This document shows positions 20,932 through 32,807 of a stretch of DNA of 33,260 nt, in pieces. The notes under the pieces are model-generated. The model made no database searches. It saw only the letters and a list, made by a program, of their open reading frames with translations, and was not told where the DNA came from. Made by a program: the position numbers and the translations under genes. Source of the DNA: a virus. The stretch spans positions 1 to 33,260 of IMG/VR virus record IMGVR_UViG_3300032288_005426. The stretch is one strand, 5' to 3'. Positions within the stretch are counted from its first letter, which is position 1; every line of letters begins with the position of its first letter.

Positions 20932-21225
20932 TTAATAGTGTGGATTATCCTTTATTTTATACCAATTTTTATTTCCTATACTTCTTTCAGTCTTTTCAAA
21001 AACCCCAGTTTCTATTAATTCTTTTATTATTTTTCCATGAGAAGTTTTCTTCCATCCAGATTCTAAAAATGAATTAAAAGTCTGGTCGGAAAATTCACCA
21101 TCAGGTCTTCCGTCTTTTATTAAATAAGAATTAAGTTCGTAGATGATGTCTTCTTTAGTGGGATATTCTGGAAGATCCTTCCAAACACCCATAAGGTATT
21201 TTAATTTAAGCTTGTTCTTCTCCAT
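20932..21225 (-). CDS. small winged-helix-like protein between UvsX and helicase
   Basis: This protein of about 97 aa is of unknown function. It is rich in Lys and aromatics. A segment reading HGKIIKELIETGVFEKTERS, followed by GNKNWYKI, has the look of a winged helix-turn-helix wing. I prefer the ATG at 21225 to the TTG at 21231; it overlaps the uvsX end by 20 bp, so translation is probably coupled. Position between recombinase and helicase suggests a mediator role comparable to UvsY or the gp59 loader, but the length and sequence do not allow that call. Confidence 0.65.
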   Translation of the reverse strand: MEKNKLKLKYLMGVWKDLPEYPTKEDIIYELNSYLIKDGRPDGEFSDQTFNSFLESGWKKTSHGKIIKELIETGVFEKTERSIGNKNWYKIKDNPHY

Positions 21226-22384
21226 CTTCAACTACATTTTCTTCTTGATCCCCGTCAATTAGATCCTCGAATTCTTTCTCGTCGAAAAGATCAGGGAGTT
21301 TAAAATGTGGCTGAATAACTTTTTCATCAATCATTTTTAGAACCTCATCGGTAAATACCTCAGGGGTAAATATCTGTGTAGATGGTACAGTTTTTCCTAA
21401 ATGTCTAACTGCCCATCTAGGTGATGATTCATTAGGGATAAATTCCATTTCCCCAGTTTTCTTGTCTACTTCAAGCTTACCTCTTTGTATTCCACACGTT
21501 TCCCAAGATACAAAATCCTGTAATCCAACATAAGCGTTCATACCATTCATAAATGAGATGTGGAATTTAACTGGATATGGTCTAGTAAATCTTGCTTTCT
21601 TTGGAGTAGATGTTACAACAATACCTGTTCTCGTATTATCACTCCCTTCTTTTAATTGAGCTTTAGAAAGCATAATAACATTACTCATAGAGAATATAGG
21701 TCCATCTCCGCCTGCAGCTTCTTTCGTCGGCATAAATCCACCGATGTTACCAGTGGTAGTGTGATTTGTACAAATTAAAGGAATCTTAACTGCAGTAAGA
21801 TCTAATGTAATAACTCTGAATAGAGATCTTAGCTCTTTTGATCTAATACCCATATCCATTGCACTTTTACCCTTTAGTGCATCTCCTGTTTCCTTATCTG
21901 TAGATAACATACCTAATGAATCTAGGATAAGAGCAATCTTAGGTTCTGCACCATCTTTTCTATAAGATTTAACCTTATCGACTAAGTTAGCAACAAACAC
22001 TTTAAAATCTGAAATAGTCTTGATCGGCTGATATCTAACTTTGTTTGTATCGATACCGAATTTTTTTGCCCCTGATTTATCAATAGCTCCTTCTGTATCG
22101 CAATATATTACGTTATAATCTTTTCTCTGAGCTTCTCTTACGATATTCATACAGAGGAAAGATTTTCCTGTTTGTGGATCACCAGCAATTCCCATTGATC
22201 TATTGTTGGCTATTCCACCGAACAATGTTCCCGATAGCTGAGCATTTAACAAGTAGTTACCAGTAGGAATCCATTCACTTACTTCCGAGAATTCATTATT
22301 TTCCAATATTGATCCCGTTTCAAAACCATCAATCTTTGATAGTTGCTTATCCAATTCTAAAAACGAAAATTCTTTCTTAGCCAT
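21206..22384 (-). CDS. uvsX: UvsX-like RecA family recombinase
   Basis: This 392-aa strand-exchange ATPase drives recombination-dependent replication and repair. Walker A GDPQTGKS is at 68-75, the NVIYCDTEGAID motif at about 91-102, and Walker B ALILDSLGML at 151-160. The catalytic/L2-type region ICTNHTTTGNIGGFMPTKEA is followed by GGDGPIFSMSN. The C-terminal tail is acidic (DGDQEENVVEDGEEQ), as in UvsX and RecA. Length equals that of T4 UvsX (391 aa). It heads the tight replication operon running to gp46. The upstream small gene (22394-22699) is only 9 bp away and probably shares its promoter. Confidence 0.95.
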   Translation of the reverse strand: MAKKEFSFLELDKQLSKIDGFETGSILENNEFSEVSEWIPTGNYLLNAQLSGTLFGGIANNRSMGIAGDPQTGKSFLCMNIVREAQRKDYNVIYCDTEGAIDKSGAKKFGIDTNKVRYQPIKTISDFKVFVANLVDKVKSYRKDGAEPKIALILDSLGMLSTDKETGDALKGKSAMDMGIRSKELRSLFRVITLDLTAVKIPLICTNHTTTGNIGGFMPTKEAAGGDGPIFSMSNVIMLSKAQLKEGSDNTRTGIVVTSTPKKARFTRPYPVKFHISFMNGMNAYVGLQDFVSWETCGIQRGKLEVDKKTGEMEFIPNESSPRWAVRHLGKTVPSTQIFTPEVFTDEVLKMIDEKVIQPHFKLPDLFDEKEFEDLIDGDQEENVVEDGEEQA

Positions 22385-22393
22385 ATTAATTAA

Positions 22394-22699
22394 TTATTTA
22401 CTTATTTTACACACTGATCTTTTAATAATTTCGGAATCGTTTAAATTTTCATTTCCGAATCTCCCGTCCATTTCTCTAAGGATATAAAGGTCCTTTCCTA
22501 AATTACGAGCCACATTTTCTAATTTTTCTATTTCCCTTGTTACGTCCAAATCACCATACCAAATTTTTCCCTCTCCTAAAACAAAAATATTAGCATTAAA
22601 ATAAACTTCATTTTCTGGATATAATTCTCTATACCCAGACTTAGATCCTGATATCATCCTAGATAAACTTAAACCCTCACTTATAAACAAATCTTCCAT
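22394..22699 (-). CDS. unknown 101-aa protein upstream of uvsX
   Basis: This protein is of unknown function. Its sequence looks folded, with NANIFVLGEGKIWYGDLDVT (a beta-hairpin-like stretch) followed by a helix, EIEKLENVARNLGKDLYIL, and REMDGRFGNE. There are no recognisable catalytic motifs or membrane segments. It is the promoter-proximal gene of the uvsX operon: a 15-nt element shared with the start region of 23056-23337 lies 25 nt upstream of its ATG. It is likely expressed early or middle with the replication genes. Confidence 0.72.
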   Translation of the reverse strand: MEDLFISEGLSLSRMISGSKSGYRELYPENEVYFNANIFVLGEGKIWYGDLDVTREIEKLENVARNLGKDLYILREMDGRFGNENLNDSEIIKRSVCKISK

Positions 22700-22759: not shown

Positions 22760-23014
22760 CTAAATTTCCCCTCTTATTTTTAGTAGTTTAGAGCAGTTCT
22801 CAAATTTTTGATTAGACTCGTTCCATTTTATTAGATGATCCAATATTTCTATTGTTTTTTGTGGATCCTCTTTTAGAGATTCTTCTAAAAGATAGGGGCA
22901 ACTAAGCCAGAGTTTAGTTTTCTTCTCCGGGTCTATCGAGTACTCTGGTTTCTCTATATACAAAAAAAATCTGCCATCAGCAGATTTTTTGATATATTTT
23001 CTTCCATTTCCCAT
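22760..23014 (-). CDS. small unknown protein, possible paralogue of the next gene
   Basis: This 84-aa protein is of unknown function. It starts MGNGRKYIKKSADGRFFLYIE and ends with a helical motif, LIKWNESNQKFENCSKLLKI. That motif resembles LIAHFESTEEYERCAFLLDL in the adjacent 93-aa protein, so the two may share a helical-hairpin module. A perfect 11-bp terminator-like hairpin lies inside codons about 9-17 of this gene, so its expression may be limited by attenuation. It is conceivable that the terminator is primary and the ORF weakly expressed. Confidence 0.6.
   Translation of the reverse strand: MGNGRKYIKKSADGRFFLYIEKPEYSIDPEKKTKLWLSCPYLLEESLKEDPQKTIEILDHLIKWNESNQKFENCSKLLKIRGEI
22964..22990 (-). 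terminator. intrinsic terminator-like hairpin inside a coding region
   Basis: The minus strand shows a perfect 11-bp stem (AAAAAATCTGC/GCAGATTTTTT) around a 5-nt loop, with the run of eight T starting in the 3' arm. It is within the 5' coding part of the 84-aa gene, about 70 nt after the stop of the 93-aa gene. It has every feature of a Rho-independent terminator apart from its coding position. Confidence 0.65.
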
Positions 23015-23055
23015 ATATCTATTATACGAGAAATTTCTGAATAAGTTTCCAAGTT

Positions 23056-23337
23056 TTATTGTAAATCTTCCAAGGATTTCTTTATGTAGTCTTTTTTCAC
23101 TTTATTGGAAAGATCTAGTAGAAAAGCACATCTCTCGTATTCTTCGGTTGATTCAAAATGTGCGATTAATCTTTCAAAAAGATCGGTTTTTAAAAACTTG
23201 TTTAATGGATTTCCTTCTTTGAATGCTTCTGCTCCTTCTACTAACATATAATCGTAAAGTTTTCTAGATTGTACATCAAACATTCGGTCTATTTGTTCTT
23301 CGAATTTTTCAAGTCTTTTTATCTCTTCTGGTTCCAT
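23056..23337 (-). CDS. small helical unknown protein
   Basis: This 93-aa protein is predicted entirely helical and highly charged (MEPEEIKRLEKFEEQIDRMF). The C-terminal helix pair, LFERLIAHFESTEEYERCAF, resembles the end of the adjacent 84-aa protein. No known domain is recognised. It is preceded by the shared promoter element at 23362-23376 and a TATATTTG box. It is probably an early or middle phage gene; function is unknown. Confidence 0.68.
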   Translation of the reverse strand: MEPEEIKRLEKFEEQIDRMFDVQSRKLYDYMLVEGAEAFKEGNPLNKFLKTDLFERLIAHFESTEEYERCAFLLDLSNKVKKDYIKKSLEDLQ

Positions 23338-23394: not shown

Positions 23395-23739
23395 CTATTT
23401 TTTATAATTTGTAAATATTTCCTCTCCGGGTCTAATATCTCTCAATGAAAAAAATATTAATTTATTCTTTACTGTATCGGTTTCCCAATCAGCATTAAAT
23501 TCGTAATCGGAGTGATTAAATATACTCCCGTATCCTAAACAAATAACTAACCTCATACCTCCTTTAGGCCAACTAAAAAAATGTTCATTTAATATATCAG
23601 GATATGCTATATCATTAGGGACTGGTATATAGTGGCATTCTTCCAATACCTCGCCCTTTTTTATATTCTCTGAAGCAAAAACACCTCTTCCGTGAACGGG
23701 GGAATCGTCTACATATATTTTCTTAGATCTATAAAGCAT
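23395..23739 (-). CDS. SET-domain protein, putative lysine methyltransferase
   Basis: This compact 114-aa protein is almost entirely a SET domain. Motifs seen: HGRGVFASENIKKGEVL at about 16-32 (the G-x-G SAM-binding opening), the GYGSIFNHS signature at 69-77 (NHS is the cofactor and catalytic pocket motif), FNADW, and C-terminal LRDIRPGEEIFTNY at 99-112 with the catalytic-type Tyr. SET enzymes transfer methyl groups from S-adenosylmethionine to protein lysines. The size is like minimal viral SET proteins such as chlorovirus vSET (about 119 aa). There is no pre-SET or post-SET zinc cluster. Its target is unknown; a host protein or a phage virion/DNA-binding protein are possibilities. Confidence 0.85.
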   Translation of the reverse strand: MLYRSKKIYVDDSPVHGRGVFASENIKKGEVLEECHYIPVPNDIAYPDILNEHFFSWPKGGMRLVICLGYGSIFNHSDYEFNADWETDTVKNKLIFFSLRDIRPGEEIFTNYKK

Positions 23740-23813
23740 AAAGGTTATAAACGGTAAATATAAAGTTTAATGATTATAATCCTATACAAATAAAAGATTT
23801 CAATAAGAGGATA

Positions 23814-23822
23814 TATAAAATA
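23814..23822 (+). promoter_or_regulatory. TATAAAATA box before the pretoxin-like gene
   Basis: A TATAAAATA variant of the late-type box lies 7 nt before the ATG at 23830, in the 90-bp divergent gap with the SET gene. The context (AGAGGATATATAAAATAAAAAATA) resembles other start regions of the window. Confidence 0.35.
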
Positions 23823-23829
23823 AAAAATA

Positions 23830-24642
23830 ATGGATAATTTATTATCTCTTGAAGATTATTTATTTGAAAGTAAGCCTCCTAGATTCTTTACAGAGGAACA
23901 AATAAATGAATCTATACAATATATGGAGAGTGAAGACCCCGCTCTAATGGAAGCATGGTACAACACTGTTCTAGATTTTGCTGCACTGGTACCTGGTGTT
24001 GGTTCAGTTGCTGAGGGTATAAACCTTGTTTCTTATGCAAAGCAAGGTGAATATTTATTAGCAGGCCTATGTGCAATAGGACTAATACCTCTTTTTGGTC
24101 AATATATAGGTGCTGGTGGATCTCTATTAGTAAAGGCATTAGGAAAAGGGAAGGCATTGGGTTCTTCAATATTAAAGCCTCTAACTAATACAGTAGCTAA
24201 ATTCTTCCCTAAGATAGTTGGATTTCTAAAAAGTTCTAAGTTTTTATCCAAGTTTTCTGGTATAGCTCCTTTTGTTGGAAAAATAATAGGTTCTCTTAAA
24301 AACTTCGTAGTTAAAGGGGGAGCAAAATTAACAAAAATGGCTACTAATCCAGCACAAATTAAGGCTTTAACAGCATCAGTAAGAGGAGTTACGAGGGAAG
24401 CAAAATTTGGATATAAAGCTTATGATTGGATGTTTGGATCAAATGCTAAACCAGCAGTTTCAACAGTTCCATCAACAGCGGGATATTCAGGAACTGCTCA
24501 GATATCTCCAGAATATCAAATCCCAGTTCCTAAAGATGCTTATATGGCTTATCAAGGAACTCCTTTAAAAAATATAAGACCTTATACAGATACTGAAATT
24601 TCACAAGCTGAAATGGCTCAAGACTGGGAAAAATATTTATAA
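23830..24642 (+). CDS. hydrophobic, glycine-rich putative head-cargo protein
   Basis: This 270-aa protein begins MDNLLSLEDYLFE, a capsid-targeting-like peptide ending in L-F-E. Residues about 45-105 form a hydrophobic, Gly-rich region (LDFAALVPGVGSVAEGINLV, GLIPLFGQYIGAGGSLLVKA). This is the pattern of pre-toxin/linker regions found in polymorphic toxins and in some T4-like phage virion proteins. Then come Lys-rich amphipathic helices (KIVGFLKSSKFLSKF, KIIGSLKNFVVKGGAKL), which could bind or insert in membranes. The C-terminus is polar (PVPKDAYMAYQG). It is a single-gene plus-strand unit with its own terminator. A packaged, membrane-active protein injected with DNA is a reasonable hypothesis; no enzymatic domain is visible. 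Confidence 0.72.
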   Translation: MDNLLSLEDYLFESKPPRFFTEEQINESIQYMESEDPALMEAWYNTVLDFAALVPGVGSVAEGINLVSYAKQGEYLLAGLCAIGLIPLFGQYIGAGGSLLVKALGKGKALGSSILKPLTNTVAKFFPKIVGFLKSSKFLSKFSGIAPFVGKIIGSLKNFVVKGGAKLTKMATNPAQIKALTASVRGVTREAKFGYKAYDWMFGSNAKPAVSTVPSTAGYSGTAQISPEYQIPVPKDAYMAYQGTPLKNIRPYTDTEISQAEMAQDWEKYL

Positions 24643-26763: not shown

Positions 26764-27564
26764 CTAAATCAAATTCTTAAGCATAGGTTTCTCTGATGAC
26801 CAAGCATGTAAAGAAGTAATGTGCATAGTAAGCATACCTGGTTTAACATTCTCCCAGCTTTCAGGATCTTTTTTCTTGCACTGTTCGATAAGCCAAAATA
26901 CTTTTCTAGCACAAAGATAAATGTCGTCTCTAAAGTGCCTAAAGAAATCACAGGATCTAATATAATAGACAACATGTACCCAATCTCCTCTTCTTATGAA
27001 GTGATATCCAATAGTGCAAGGAACTCTTTCTCCGTGAACTGATCCAGTATCTTCTGGATACCATATAGGTAAAAATGCTTGCCTAGTGAAAGGCTCTCTA
27101 ACCATAAGATTAATAACGTCTGCAAAATCTCCGTAATGGTATCTTATACCTTTTAAAGTACATCCAGTAATACGTGTTTCGGATTCAGCCTCTCCATATT
27201 TTCCCCAGATTCTTTCCGGATATGTGTGAGAGAATTTTTCATCACCTCCAAATTCAGAATTATTCTTTTGAGCATATGGCCATCGCACATGAGATGGAGG
27301 GGGATTTAAAGGAGATCCGCTAACCCTTTCTTCAAAGTGTTCGTCTGCCCATGCAAAATTAGGTTTAATTTGTTCTCCTATAACTTTAATGTCTGGTGAC
27401 ATCTGACACGAAAATGAAAGATTCAATGTCTCAATCATGGCATATCTTGGATCATGTTTAATCTCCTTTCCTTGCCATTTCTCTGTATGAACAACATACG
27501 AATAATCGTACATCTGTTGCGCTGTCCATTTTATGACATCATCAAATCTCCCAAATTTCTTCAT
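26764..27564 (-). CDS. thymidylate synthase-family enzyme, likely dCMP (hydroxy)methylase type
   Basis: This 266-aa protein is of the ThyA superfamily. The catalytic Cys is Cys183 in ERVPCTIGYHF. The phosphate/substrate motif RSCDFF at 203-208 aligns with E. coli ThyA Arg166-Ser167-Cys168-Asp169. The downstream block FRDDIYLCAR puts Asp214 at the position of E. coli Asn177. Asn there selects dUMP, while Asp is characteristic of dCMP-specific enzymes such as T4 dCMP hydroxymethylase (gp42). A His-containing MHITSLHAW strand follows, with Thr where ThyA has Tyr209. The N-terminal half is divergent (SHTYPERIWGKYG in place of the usual DLGPVYGxQWR). The likely product is a C5-modified dCMP; a divergent thymidylate synthase remains possible. 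Confidence 0.75.
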   Translation of the reverse strand: MKKFGRFDDVIKWTAQQMYDYSYVVHTEKWQGKEIKHDPRYAMIETLNLSFSCQMSPDIKVIGEQIKPNFAWADEHFEERVSGSPLNPPPSHVRWPYAQKNNSEFGGDEKFSHTYPERIWGKYGEAESETRITGCTLKGIRYHYGDFADVINLMVREPFTRQAFLPIWYPEDTGSVHGERVPCTIGYHFIRRGDWVHVVYYIRSCDFFRHFRDDIYLCARKVFWLIEQCKKKDPESWENVKPGMLTMHITSLHAWSSEKPMLKNLI

Positions 27565-27609
27565 TTATTTTAATGTTTTCTATTATATGGATGTTTATAT
27601 TATAGTTTC

Positions 27610-28677
27610 CTATTTATGGAACCTATCGAAAGAATTTTTTGATATTTTATTGAACCGGACTTTGCCAATAAATTCACCTATAGTTAAACAGTCAGTATAA
27701 CTCATTGCGGATTTAAGATAATCCTTGAAGTTTTCTGTCCATCCAGTTAGTGTATATTCGACTGGCTGCATTTTTGAAATACCCTCTGAAGTTTTAAGTT
27801 CGGTTTTACCTAAGCTTTTCTGTACCTCTTTAGTGGACATCCCCCTAAATTTCTTATAGAATTTTCTTCCTGCTTCAAATTGTAATAATGTATCGATTGA
27901 ATATTGATCAACCTTAGCCCCTGGTTCTTTCCAAGTTCCGTGATTTATATTTTCTTCATATGTTTCTCCGCAGCTTTCCAGAGTCTTGTTAAAAATACTA
28001 CCTAGCATTACGTAATCAGCACCTAGTGCTAGAGCCTTTATAACATCGGAATACTTCTTAAATCCGCCGTCTGCTACTATTTTAGTACTTAGATTTCTTT
28101 CTTCCTGTAATTTATATGTTTCATGTATCAAAGAAGCCATTGGATATCCTATACCAGTTTGTACTGTTGTTAGACATCCTGCACCATTTCCTATACCCAT
28201 TCTTACGTAATCTGCACCTGCATTTGCAAGAGAAAGAAATGTCATAGGATTAGCACAATTACCAACCATAATAACTAAGGAACTACCGTATATCTCTTTT
28301 GATTCCTCAACTAGCTCTTTTACTAAGCTCATATGACCATTGGCTATATCTATGAGAGCATAGCATTTCTTTCCAAGTGGTATATTAGCTTTGTTATCTA
28401 TGAAGACTTTTTTAAAATCATCGAGGCCATATGAAAACCAAACTTTATAATCGGTTGAAAAATAGTTTATCCCATAATCTATAGATAATCTTGGTATGAT
28501 TCCGTATATCTTATTTTCATTGAATATAGTATAATTATTATTATCTATAACAGTATCCATAGGGGCAGTAAAAAGAGGAAGCATTTGTTTCTCGTCAAAT
28601 ACGTCTACTTTTTTTCTAGACAGAATACTGGTGTGAACCTCTGGTTCAATTAGAATATCATCGAAGTCAAAAAGCAT
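27610..28677 (-). CDS. IMP dehydrogenase / GMP reductase family enzyme
   Basis: This protein of about 355 aa belongs to the IMPDH/GMPR TIM-barrel family. Motifs: FDDILIEP near the N-terminus, FTAPMDTV, the catalytic-loop segment GIGNGAGCLTT (about 161-171) with nucleophile Cys168, VADGGFKKYSDVIKALALGA, LGSIF, then FRGMSTKEVQ and SEG. No CBS domain pair is present, so it is either a minimal IMPDH or a GMP reductase; FRGMSTKE looks more GMPR-like. I used the ATG at 28677 (MLFDFDD) rather than an upstream start whose extra residues look non-homologous. It sits next to the TS-like gene, suggesting nucleotide-pool remodelling. Confidence 0.88.
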   Translation of the reverse strand: MLFDFDDILIEPEVHTSILSRKKVDVFDEKQMLPLFTAPMDTVIDNNNYTIFNENKIYGIIPRLSIDYGINYFSTDYKVWFSYGLDDFKKVFIDNKANIPLGKKCYALIDIANGHMSLVKELVEESKEIYGSSLVIMVGNCANPMTFLSLANAGADYVRMGIGNGAGCLTTVQTGIGYPMASLIHETYKLQEERNLSTKIVADGGFKKYSDVIKALALGADYVMLGSIFNKTLESCGETYEENINHGTWKEPGAKVDQYSIDTLLQFEAGRKFYKKFRGMSTKEVQKSLGKTELKTSEGISKMQPVEYTLTGWTENFKDYLKSAMSYTDCLTIGEFIGKVRFNKISKNSFDRFHK

Positions 28678-28716
28678 GATTATTTTATTCTTTATAGTGT
28701 AAAAAAAATAAAGATT

Positions 28717-28754
28717 CCACAAAAATGCCCAGATTTTTTAAGATCCGGGCATTT
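28717..28754 (-). terminator. intrinsic terminator after the 467-aa gene
   Basis: A 12-bp stem (minus strand AAATGCCCGGAT with ATCTGGGCATTT, one G-T pair) and an 8-nt loop is followed by a short TT run and GTGG. It is located between the 467-aa gene and the GMPR-like gene. The flanking A/T runs on the other side would also allow it to act on the plus strand. Confidence 0.75.
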
Positions 28755-32694: not shown

Positions 32695-32735
32695 AATCTA
32701 AAATTTTACATACTGGTCATTGTATTTATCTTTTG

Positions 32736-32807
32736 TTTTCCCCCAAGGATTCGAACCTCGATTCTGTGGACCAAAACCACATGTCCTGCCAATTAGACGA
32801 GAGGAAA
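32736..32807 (-). tRNA. tRNA-Gln (anticodon UUG)
   Basis: This is a 72-nt cloverleaf on the minus strand. The acceptor TTTCCTC pairs with GGGGAAA (one G-T). The D arm is GTCT/GGAC with loop AATTGGCA, the anticodon arm TGTGG/CCACA with loop TTTTGGT (anticodon TTG, reads CAA), and the variable loop is 4 nt. The T arm is CGAGG/CCTTG with the canonical TTCGAAT loop. The discriminator base is A, and CCA is not encoded. It matches the AT-rich codon use of the phage. Confidence 0.93.

What the first reader, a model, noticed from the sequence alone, without database searches (positions are those of the whole stretch)
23395..23739. Minimal SET-domain methyltransferase in a bacteriophage
All SET hallmarks are visible in 114 aa (HGRGVFA, GYGSIFNHS, GEEIFTNY). 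SET proteins are well known in eukaryotes and in chloroviruses (vSET methylates host histone H3) but little studied in phages. It sits next to the head-cargo genes and small early-type genes, so it could modify a host protein such as a nucleoid protein, ribosome or polymerase, or a phage protein.
Basis: partly seen in the sequence, partly recalled or inferred. Interest (0 to 1): 0.6.

Follow-up and report, generated by a model that had tools for sequence, protein, structure and literature searches.

The report
Tail-less SET methyltransferase in T4-like phages
A T4-like phage, probably of Bacteroidota bacteria, carries a real and conserved small SET-domain protein (a lysine-methylating enzyme fold best known from histone modification), but its whole phage clade has lost the short end segment that normally completes the active site, so its activity and target are open, testable questions.

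Summary
The ORF at 23395-23739 (-) is a genuine SET protein: Pfam SET 1.7e-14, nearest solved structure chlorovirus vSET 4e-12, model pLDDT 91 with vSET as top PDB fold match. It is a maintained gene: 23 IMG/VR contigs carry 62-81% identical copies in the same slot (divergent head-cargo-like gene / SET / three small genes / uvsX), with median dN/dS about 0.13. A sister T4-like clade keeps the flanking genes but lacks SET there. Phage SETs are already annotated in public databases (Stenotrophomonas phages, uncultured Caudovirales), so this is a new variant, not a new kind.

In all 18 distinct clade members the protein ends 2-6 residues after the catalytic Tyr. Of 45 other SETs compared, 44 have 8 or more residues there and 43 have an aromatic. 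That post-SET segment normally helps form the SAM and peptide sites. Varying stop codons argue against an error.

Most likely it is a lysine methyltransferase acting on a host or phage protein, with the missing segment supplied by dimerisation, the substrate or a partner. A binding protein without catalysis is the main rival. Substrate and activity are untested.

The parts
23395..23739 (-). SET-domain protein ORF (114 aa)
   Evidence: Pfam PF00856 1.7e-14; vSET 4e-12; fold match vSET 3kma E 7.7e-9, TM 0.76/0.82; 23 homologous loci
23674..23694 (-). HGRGVFA, N-terminal SET motif (residues 16-22)
   Evidence: sequence; H16, G17, R18, G19, F21 invariant in the first 12-member alignment
23509..23535 (-). 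GYGSIFNHS pseudoknot/SAM motif (residues 69-77)
   Evidence: 16 of 18 distinct clade members NHS, 2 NNS; aligns to vSET GFGAIFNHS
23404..23427 (-). GEEIFTNY, ends in the predicted catalytic Tyr112 (codon 23404-23406)
   Evidence: aligns to vSET Y105; Tyr present in 18/18
23395..23403 (-). Residual tail Lys-Lys-stop: missing post-SET segment
   Evidence: tail 2-6 aa in all 18 clade members versus 8 or more aa in 44 of 45 other SETs; stops vary TAA/TAG/TGA
23740..23829 (.). Divergent intergenic region between SET and 23830-24642
   Evidence: invariant TATATAT element in 17 loci; ATATATAAAA 19 nt upstream of the 23830 ORF
23830..24642 (+). Divergent neighbour, head-cargo-like protein with a late-type promoter element
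   Evidence: next to SET in all 23 SET loci; late-type element shared with sheath and tube genes; head-cargo role is inferred only
23056..23337 (-). Small neighbour gene (93 aa), present with or without SET
   Evidence: own TAnnTTTG element at -28
22760..23014 (-). Small neighbour gene (84 aa), found only in the SET-carrying clade; speculative partner
   Evidence: collection scan: 22 contigs, all of the SET clade; no full-length match in 33 sister or distant SET records; near-invariant YIK(K/R)S(A/P)(D/N)GR
22394..22699 (-). Conserved small gene upstream of uvsX
21206..22384 (-). UvsX-like recombinase, downstream end of the SET-led block
   Evidence: PHROG 97 1.3e-55; synteny

Best explanation
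The gene encodes a phage-type SET protein that most likely transfers methyl groups from SAM to lysine on a protein target during infection. Shown: SET fold, kept SAM-motif region and catalytic Tyr, purifying selection, fixed position at the head of the block leading to uvsX in one clade of T4-like phages, and absence of the C-terminal post-SET segment in that whole clade. Inferred: because the open side of the cofactor and peptide sites lacks its usual cover, the site is completed by self-dimerisation, by the substrate, or by another phage or host protein, giving an enzyme that works on a docked target rather than a free tail. The target is unknown; a DNA-associated or replication protein fits the location and the known archaeal case (Go1-SET on the chromosomal protein MC1-alpha) but is a guess.
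For: Pfam SET over the full profile; vSET-like by sequence and fold; pLDDT 91. Catalytic Tyr in 18/18 and NHS in 16/18 distinct clade members although dN is substantial; median dN/dS 0.127, lower than the three small neighbours (0.17-0.23) and above uvsX (0.068). Same slot in all 23 loci. Phage SETs form a group apart from the cellular ones sampled, and the clade is a unit in it (88/85 and 91/95 support). Small stand-alone SETs can be active: vSET on H3K27 (PMC3089700), Go1-SET on MC1-alpha (PMC3980110). A DIM5 without the post-SET domain is functional in vivo (PMC8115510).
Against: In SAM/SAH-bound SET structures the post-SET segment contributes to the cofactor pocket and the peptide groove (PMC3868588, PMC2797608), and this clade lacks it. 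Two members have NNS in place of NHS. No activity, cofactor binding or substrate was shown. The sister clade replicates without it at this site, so it is not essential to this phage type.
Confidence: 0.55

Rival explanations
1. Non-catalytic SET: the truncated domain no longer turns over but binds a host or phage protein (or SAM), as a takeover or assembly factor.
For: Post-SET segment absent in the whole clade, while it helps complete the cofactor site in known structures (PMC3868588). NHS to NNS in two members. The distant SET of phage Moby also ends two residues after the Tyr, with a degenerate NSS motif.
Against: Catalytic Tyr kept in 18/18 and NHS in 16/18; purifying selection on the protein. 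A pseudo-enzyme would be expected to lose the Tyr in some lineages.
Confidence: 0.25
2. Trans-completed SET with a dedicated partner: the 84-aa neighbour 22760-23014 supplies the missing segment.
For: The neighbour occurs only in the tail-less SET clade, two genes downstream, with a Tyr-to-LW spacing (EYSIDPEKKTKLW) like that of cellular tails (NYNGEPEDQSPLW).
Against: Both genes mark one clade, so co-occurrence counts as a single event. Its LW lies in a predicted helix. The nearest phage relatives have tails without LW (GEGYEKVVKTVQ, NRSGGNHFD). The motif match was noticed after the fact. In one member (L003) the neighbour appears frame-broken while SET is intact.
Confidence: 0.07
3. Ordinary passenger gene: a mobile small gene with no role of note, kept by chance at a variable spot.
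For: The slot is variable: a Nudix-like gene in L043 or nothing in L054 of the sister clade.
Against: Present in the same place in all 23 loci, with dN/dS about 0.13.
Confidence: 0.06

Closest known systems
vSET (PBCV-1 A612L, chlorovirus H3K27 methyltransferase)
   Same: Minimal stand-alone SET domain without pre-SET; best PDB match by sequence (4e-12) and fold (3kma, TM 0.76/0.82); IFNHS and catalytic Tyr shared.
   Different: vSET is 119 aa with the Tyr at 105, i.e. 14 residues after it; this protein has 2. vSET Y16 and Y50 align to R18 and H53 here (alignment). vSET acts on a eukaryotic histone; the substrate here is unknown.
Annotated phage SET proteins (Stenotrophomonas phages Moby, Ps15; uncultured Caudovirales A0A6J5L8Y2)
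   Same: SET domain in tailed phages, 33-41% identical; Moby also ends at KYLI.
   Different: Unrelated genome context; most other phage SETs keep an aromatic tail.
Chromosomal SET proteins of Saprospiraceae (Bacteroidota)
   Same: 37-42% identity, IFNH and NY motifs.
   Different: About 128-149 aa with a conserved LWF tail; neighbouring genes are cellular.
Go1-SET (Methanosarcina mazei)
   Same: Prokaryotic SET acting on a DNA-associated protein, MC1-alpha (PMC3980110): functional analogy.
   Different: Not compared by sequence here; cellular, not viral.

Membership tests
SET domain (Pfam PF00856) | Significant full-length match to the profile | tested here: met
   54.5 bits against a cut-off of 22.4, positions 1-105
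SET domain (Pfam PF00856) | SET (beta-clip, pseudoknot) fold | tested here: met
   pLDDT 91; the 50 PDB matches shown are SET or PR-domain proteins and complexes
SET lysine methyltransferase | NHxx SAM/pseudoknot motif and catalytic Tyr | tested here: met
   N75-H76-S77 and Y112 in the window; Tyr 18/18, NHS 16/18
SET lysine methyltransferase | Post-SET/C-terminal segment completing SAM and peptide sites | tested here: not met
   2-6 residues in all 18 distinct clade members; role of the segment PMC3868588, PMC2797608. Hence filed as a SET-domain protein, with methyltransferase activity inferred only
SET lysine methyltransferase | SAM-dependent methyl transfer to lysine | not testable with these tools
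   needs an enzyme assay
vSET-type viral histone methyltransferase | Homodimer acting on histone H3 Lys27 | not testable with these tools
   no complex prediction available; a bacterial host has no H3 (general knowledge)
T4-like phage genome | gp46/47, UvsX, DnaB-like gp41 helicase, terminase, tail sheath, gp55-like sigma | tested here: met
   PHROG matches

The most novel reading that the evidence does not exclude
The clade has evolved a SET methyltransferase whose cofactor and peptide sites are completed in trans, by a second subunit, a phage partner (for instance the clade-specific 84-aa neighbour) or the substrate itself, so that methylation happens only on the docked target during phage replication.
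Probability: 0.15. Interest if true: 0.7.

Novelty: new variant of a known kind. Interest (0 to 1): 0.42.

Why it matters
Protein-lysine methylation by phages is almost unstudied; no phage SET enzyme with a shown substrate turned up in the searches made here. A conserved SET fixed next to the recombination and replication genes of an environmental phage clade is a good test case for whether phages mark host or phage proteins as chloroviruses mark histones. The natural absence of the post-SET segment also asks what the smallest working SET domain is, and whether that segment can be supplied in trans.

Tried and rejected
Chance motif match: rejected by profile, structure and synteny. Sequencing error or recoded stop causing the short tail: rejected, since 18 distinct sequences end there with TAA, TAG or TGA at slightly different positions and no conserved reading frame was seen downstream. 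Recent host acquisition: not favoured, as the closest sampled cellular relatives are only 37-42% identical and fall outside the phage group, though many deep forks are unresolved. H3K27-like substrate in the neighbour 22760-23014 (IKKSA against ARKSA): considered, but the motif lies in a predicted beta hairpin rather than a free tail, so not pursued. Neighbour 22760-23014 has no fold match (best E 0.6). Anti-defence role: no PADLOC match for SET or neighbours, which is weak evidence. Host from promoter signature: TTTG-N17-22-TAnnTTTG is not enriched in the window, so the host phylum rests on weaker signs. Near-DNA search of phage records found no match.

Full report
Observation. The minus-strand ORF 23395-23739 encodes 114 aa with the three motifs quoted. 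It matches Pfam SET over the full profile (54.5 bits, E 1.7e-14). PHROGs gives only two families of unknown function. The nearest solved structure by sequence is PBCV-1 vSET (4e-12), then S. pombe Set7 and P. falciparum PFL0690c. The AlphaFold model (23-row alignment) has mean pLDDT 91.0 and pTM 0.84; the best PDB fold match is vSET 3kma, TM 0.76/0.82, and the best viral match a SET protein of an uncultured Caudovirales phage, 41% identical. By the alignment, vSET Y105 corresponds to Y112, vSET Y16 to R18 and vSET Y50 to H53.

Genome. The window is a 33,260-base virus record. PHROG matches show a T4-like phage: gp55-like sigma factor, dCMP deaminase, tail tube and sheath, terminase, gp46/gp47, DnaB-like helicase, UvsX. 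The host is not shown; Bacteroidota is a guess from the nearest cellular SETs (Saprospiraceae), lipoprotein-like genes in sister phages, helicase similarity to Prevotella phages (37%) and a TAnnTTTG element before one gene. The full Bacteroidota promoter pattern is not enriched.

Conservation. Two scans of IMG/VR gave 23 contigs with 62-81% identical SETs. In all 23 the order around it is: gene 23830 (opposite strand), SET, 23056, 22760, 22394, uvsX, 20932, gp41, 19151, gp47, gp46. Median dN/dS among 18 sequences is 0.127 for SET, 0.225, 0.224 and 0.166 for the three small neighbours, 0.163 for gene 23830 and 0.068 for uvsX (synonymous sites are near saturation, so these are rough). Eighteen further uvsX loci (77-84% identical UvsX, gp41 at 61-78%) show no SET near uvsX, though four have under 3 kb of upstream sequence and one (L070) has none. 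Of 11 such records searched whole, one (G004) has a different, longer SET-like ORF elsewhere; records may be fragments. In L043 the slot holds a Nudix-like gene, and in L054 nothing. So SET is a clade-level accessory gene, gained by this clade or lost by the other.

Missing tail. Across 18 distinct clade members the protein ends 2-6 residues after the catalytic Tyr; seven of these stubs contain an aromatic residue, none a Trp. Among 45 other SETs found (five cellular, the rest from viral records), 44 have 8 or more residues, 43 have an aromatic, 29 a Trp; the single short one is Stenotrophomonas phage Moby. The collection scan that supplied most of them used patterns upstream of or ending at the Tyr, so tail length did not drive recovery. 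Stops are TAA, TAG and TGA at different positions, and the following 60-80 bases show no conserved frame. The nearest phage relatives (L113, 50%; L115, L116, 45-48%) have tails of 9-12 residues, which suggests loss in the clade. In known SAM/SAH-bound SET structures the post-SET segment contributes to the cofactor site, and with I-SET forms the peptide groove (PMC3868588; PMC2797608). One fungal DIM5 without a recognised post-SET domain is functional in vivo, though it has a long C-terminal tail (PMC8115510).

Origin. In a 63-row tree (116 columns, many forks unresolved) the window clade is a unit (91/95) inside a phage group (88/85) from which the sampled Saprospiraceae, Bacillus and WWE3 proteins are excluded.

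Expression. Gene 23830 has ATATATAAAA 19 nt upstream, like a tail tube gene, and TATAAATAAA precedes the sheath gene; the TATATAT element is invariant in 17 loci. SET is therefore divergent from a probable late gene and reads towards uvsX. A TATAA close to the SET start codon is frequent but not interpreted.

Partner candidate. The 84-aa gene 22760-23014 was found in 22 contigs, all of the SET clade, and not, beyond one weak partial match, in 33 sister or distant SET records. Its predicted structure is a hairpin plus helices (pLDDT 80, pTM 0.57) without a fold match. Co-occurrence is one evolutionary event and the tail-like motif was noticed after the fact, so this is only a lead.

Literature. 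Phage SETs appear as annotations (Ps15: PMC9025141; Moby record). No phage SET with a known substrate was found; the library holds only open-licence papers.

Verdict. A real, selected, clade-fixed SET protein; activity and substrate untested; a new variant because of the missing post-SET segment.

Noticed in passing
L132 2908-3866; L134 2923-3849: Two SET genes lie head to tail in the same phage contig, next to an IMPDH-like gene.
   Followed up: no
L043 3111-3644: A Nudix-like hydrolase gene (by motif) occupies the SET slot in a sister phage.
   Followed up: no
26764-28722: A divergent thymidylate-synthase-like gene next to a GMP reductase/IMPDH-like gene, a pair kept in nearly all SET loci; possible nucleotide modification genes.
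   Followed up: partly
upstream of 9327, 3129, 5881, 15779 (-) and 23830 (+): ATATATAAAA or TATAAATAAA 11-19 nt before start codons of structural or unknown genes, a likely late promoter of this phage group.
   Followed up: partly
L003 4210-4393: The 84-aa neighbour gene appears frame-broken in one clade member whose SET gene is intact.
   Followed up: partly
22760-23337: The two small genes 22760-23014 and 23056-23337 look alike at their C-terminal ends (by eye), possible paralogues.
   Followed up: no
L022 and L025 SET: NHS is NNS in these two clade members.
   Followed up: no
32735-32807: tRNA-Gln (ttg) gene on the minus strand beside an HNH endonuclease gene.
   Followed up: no
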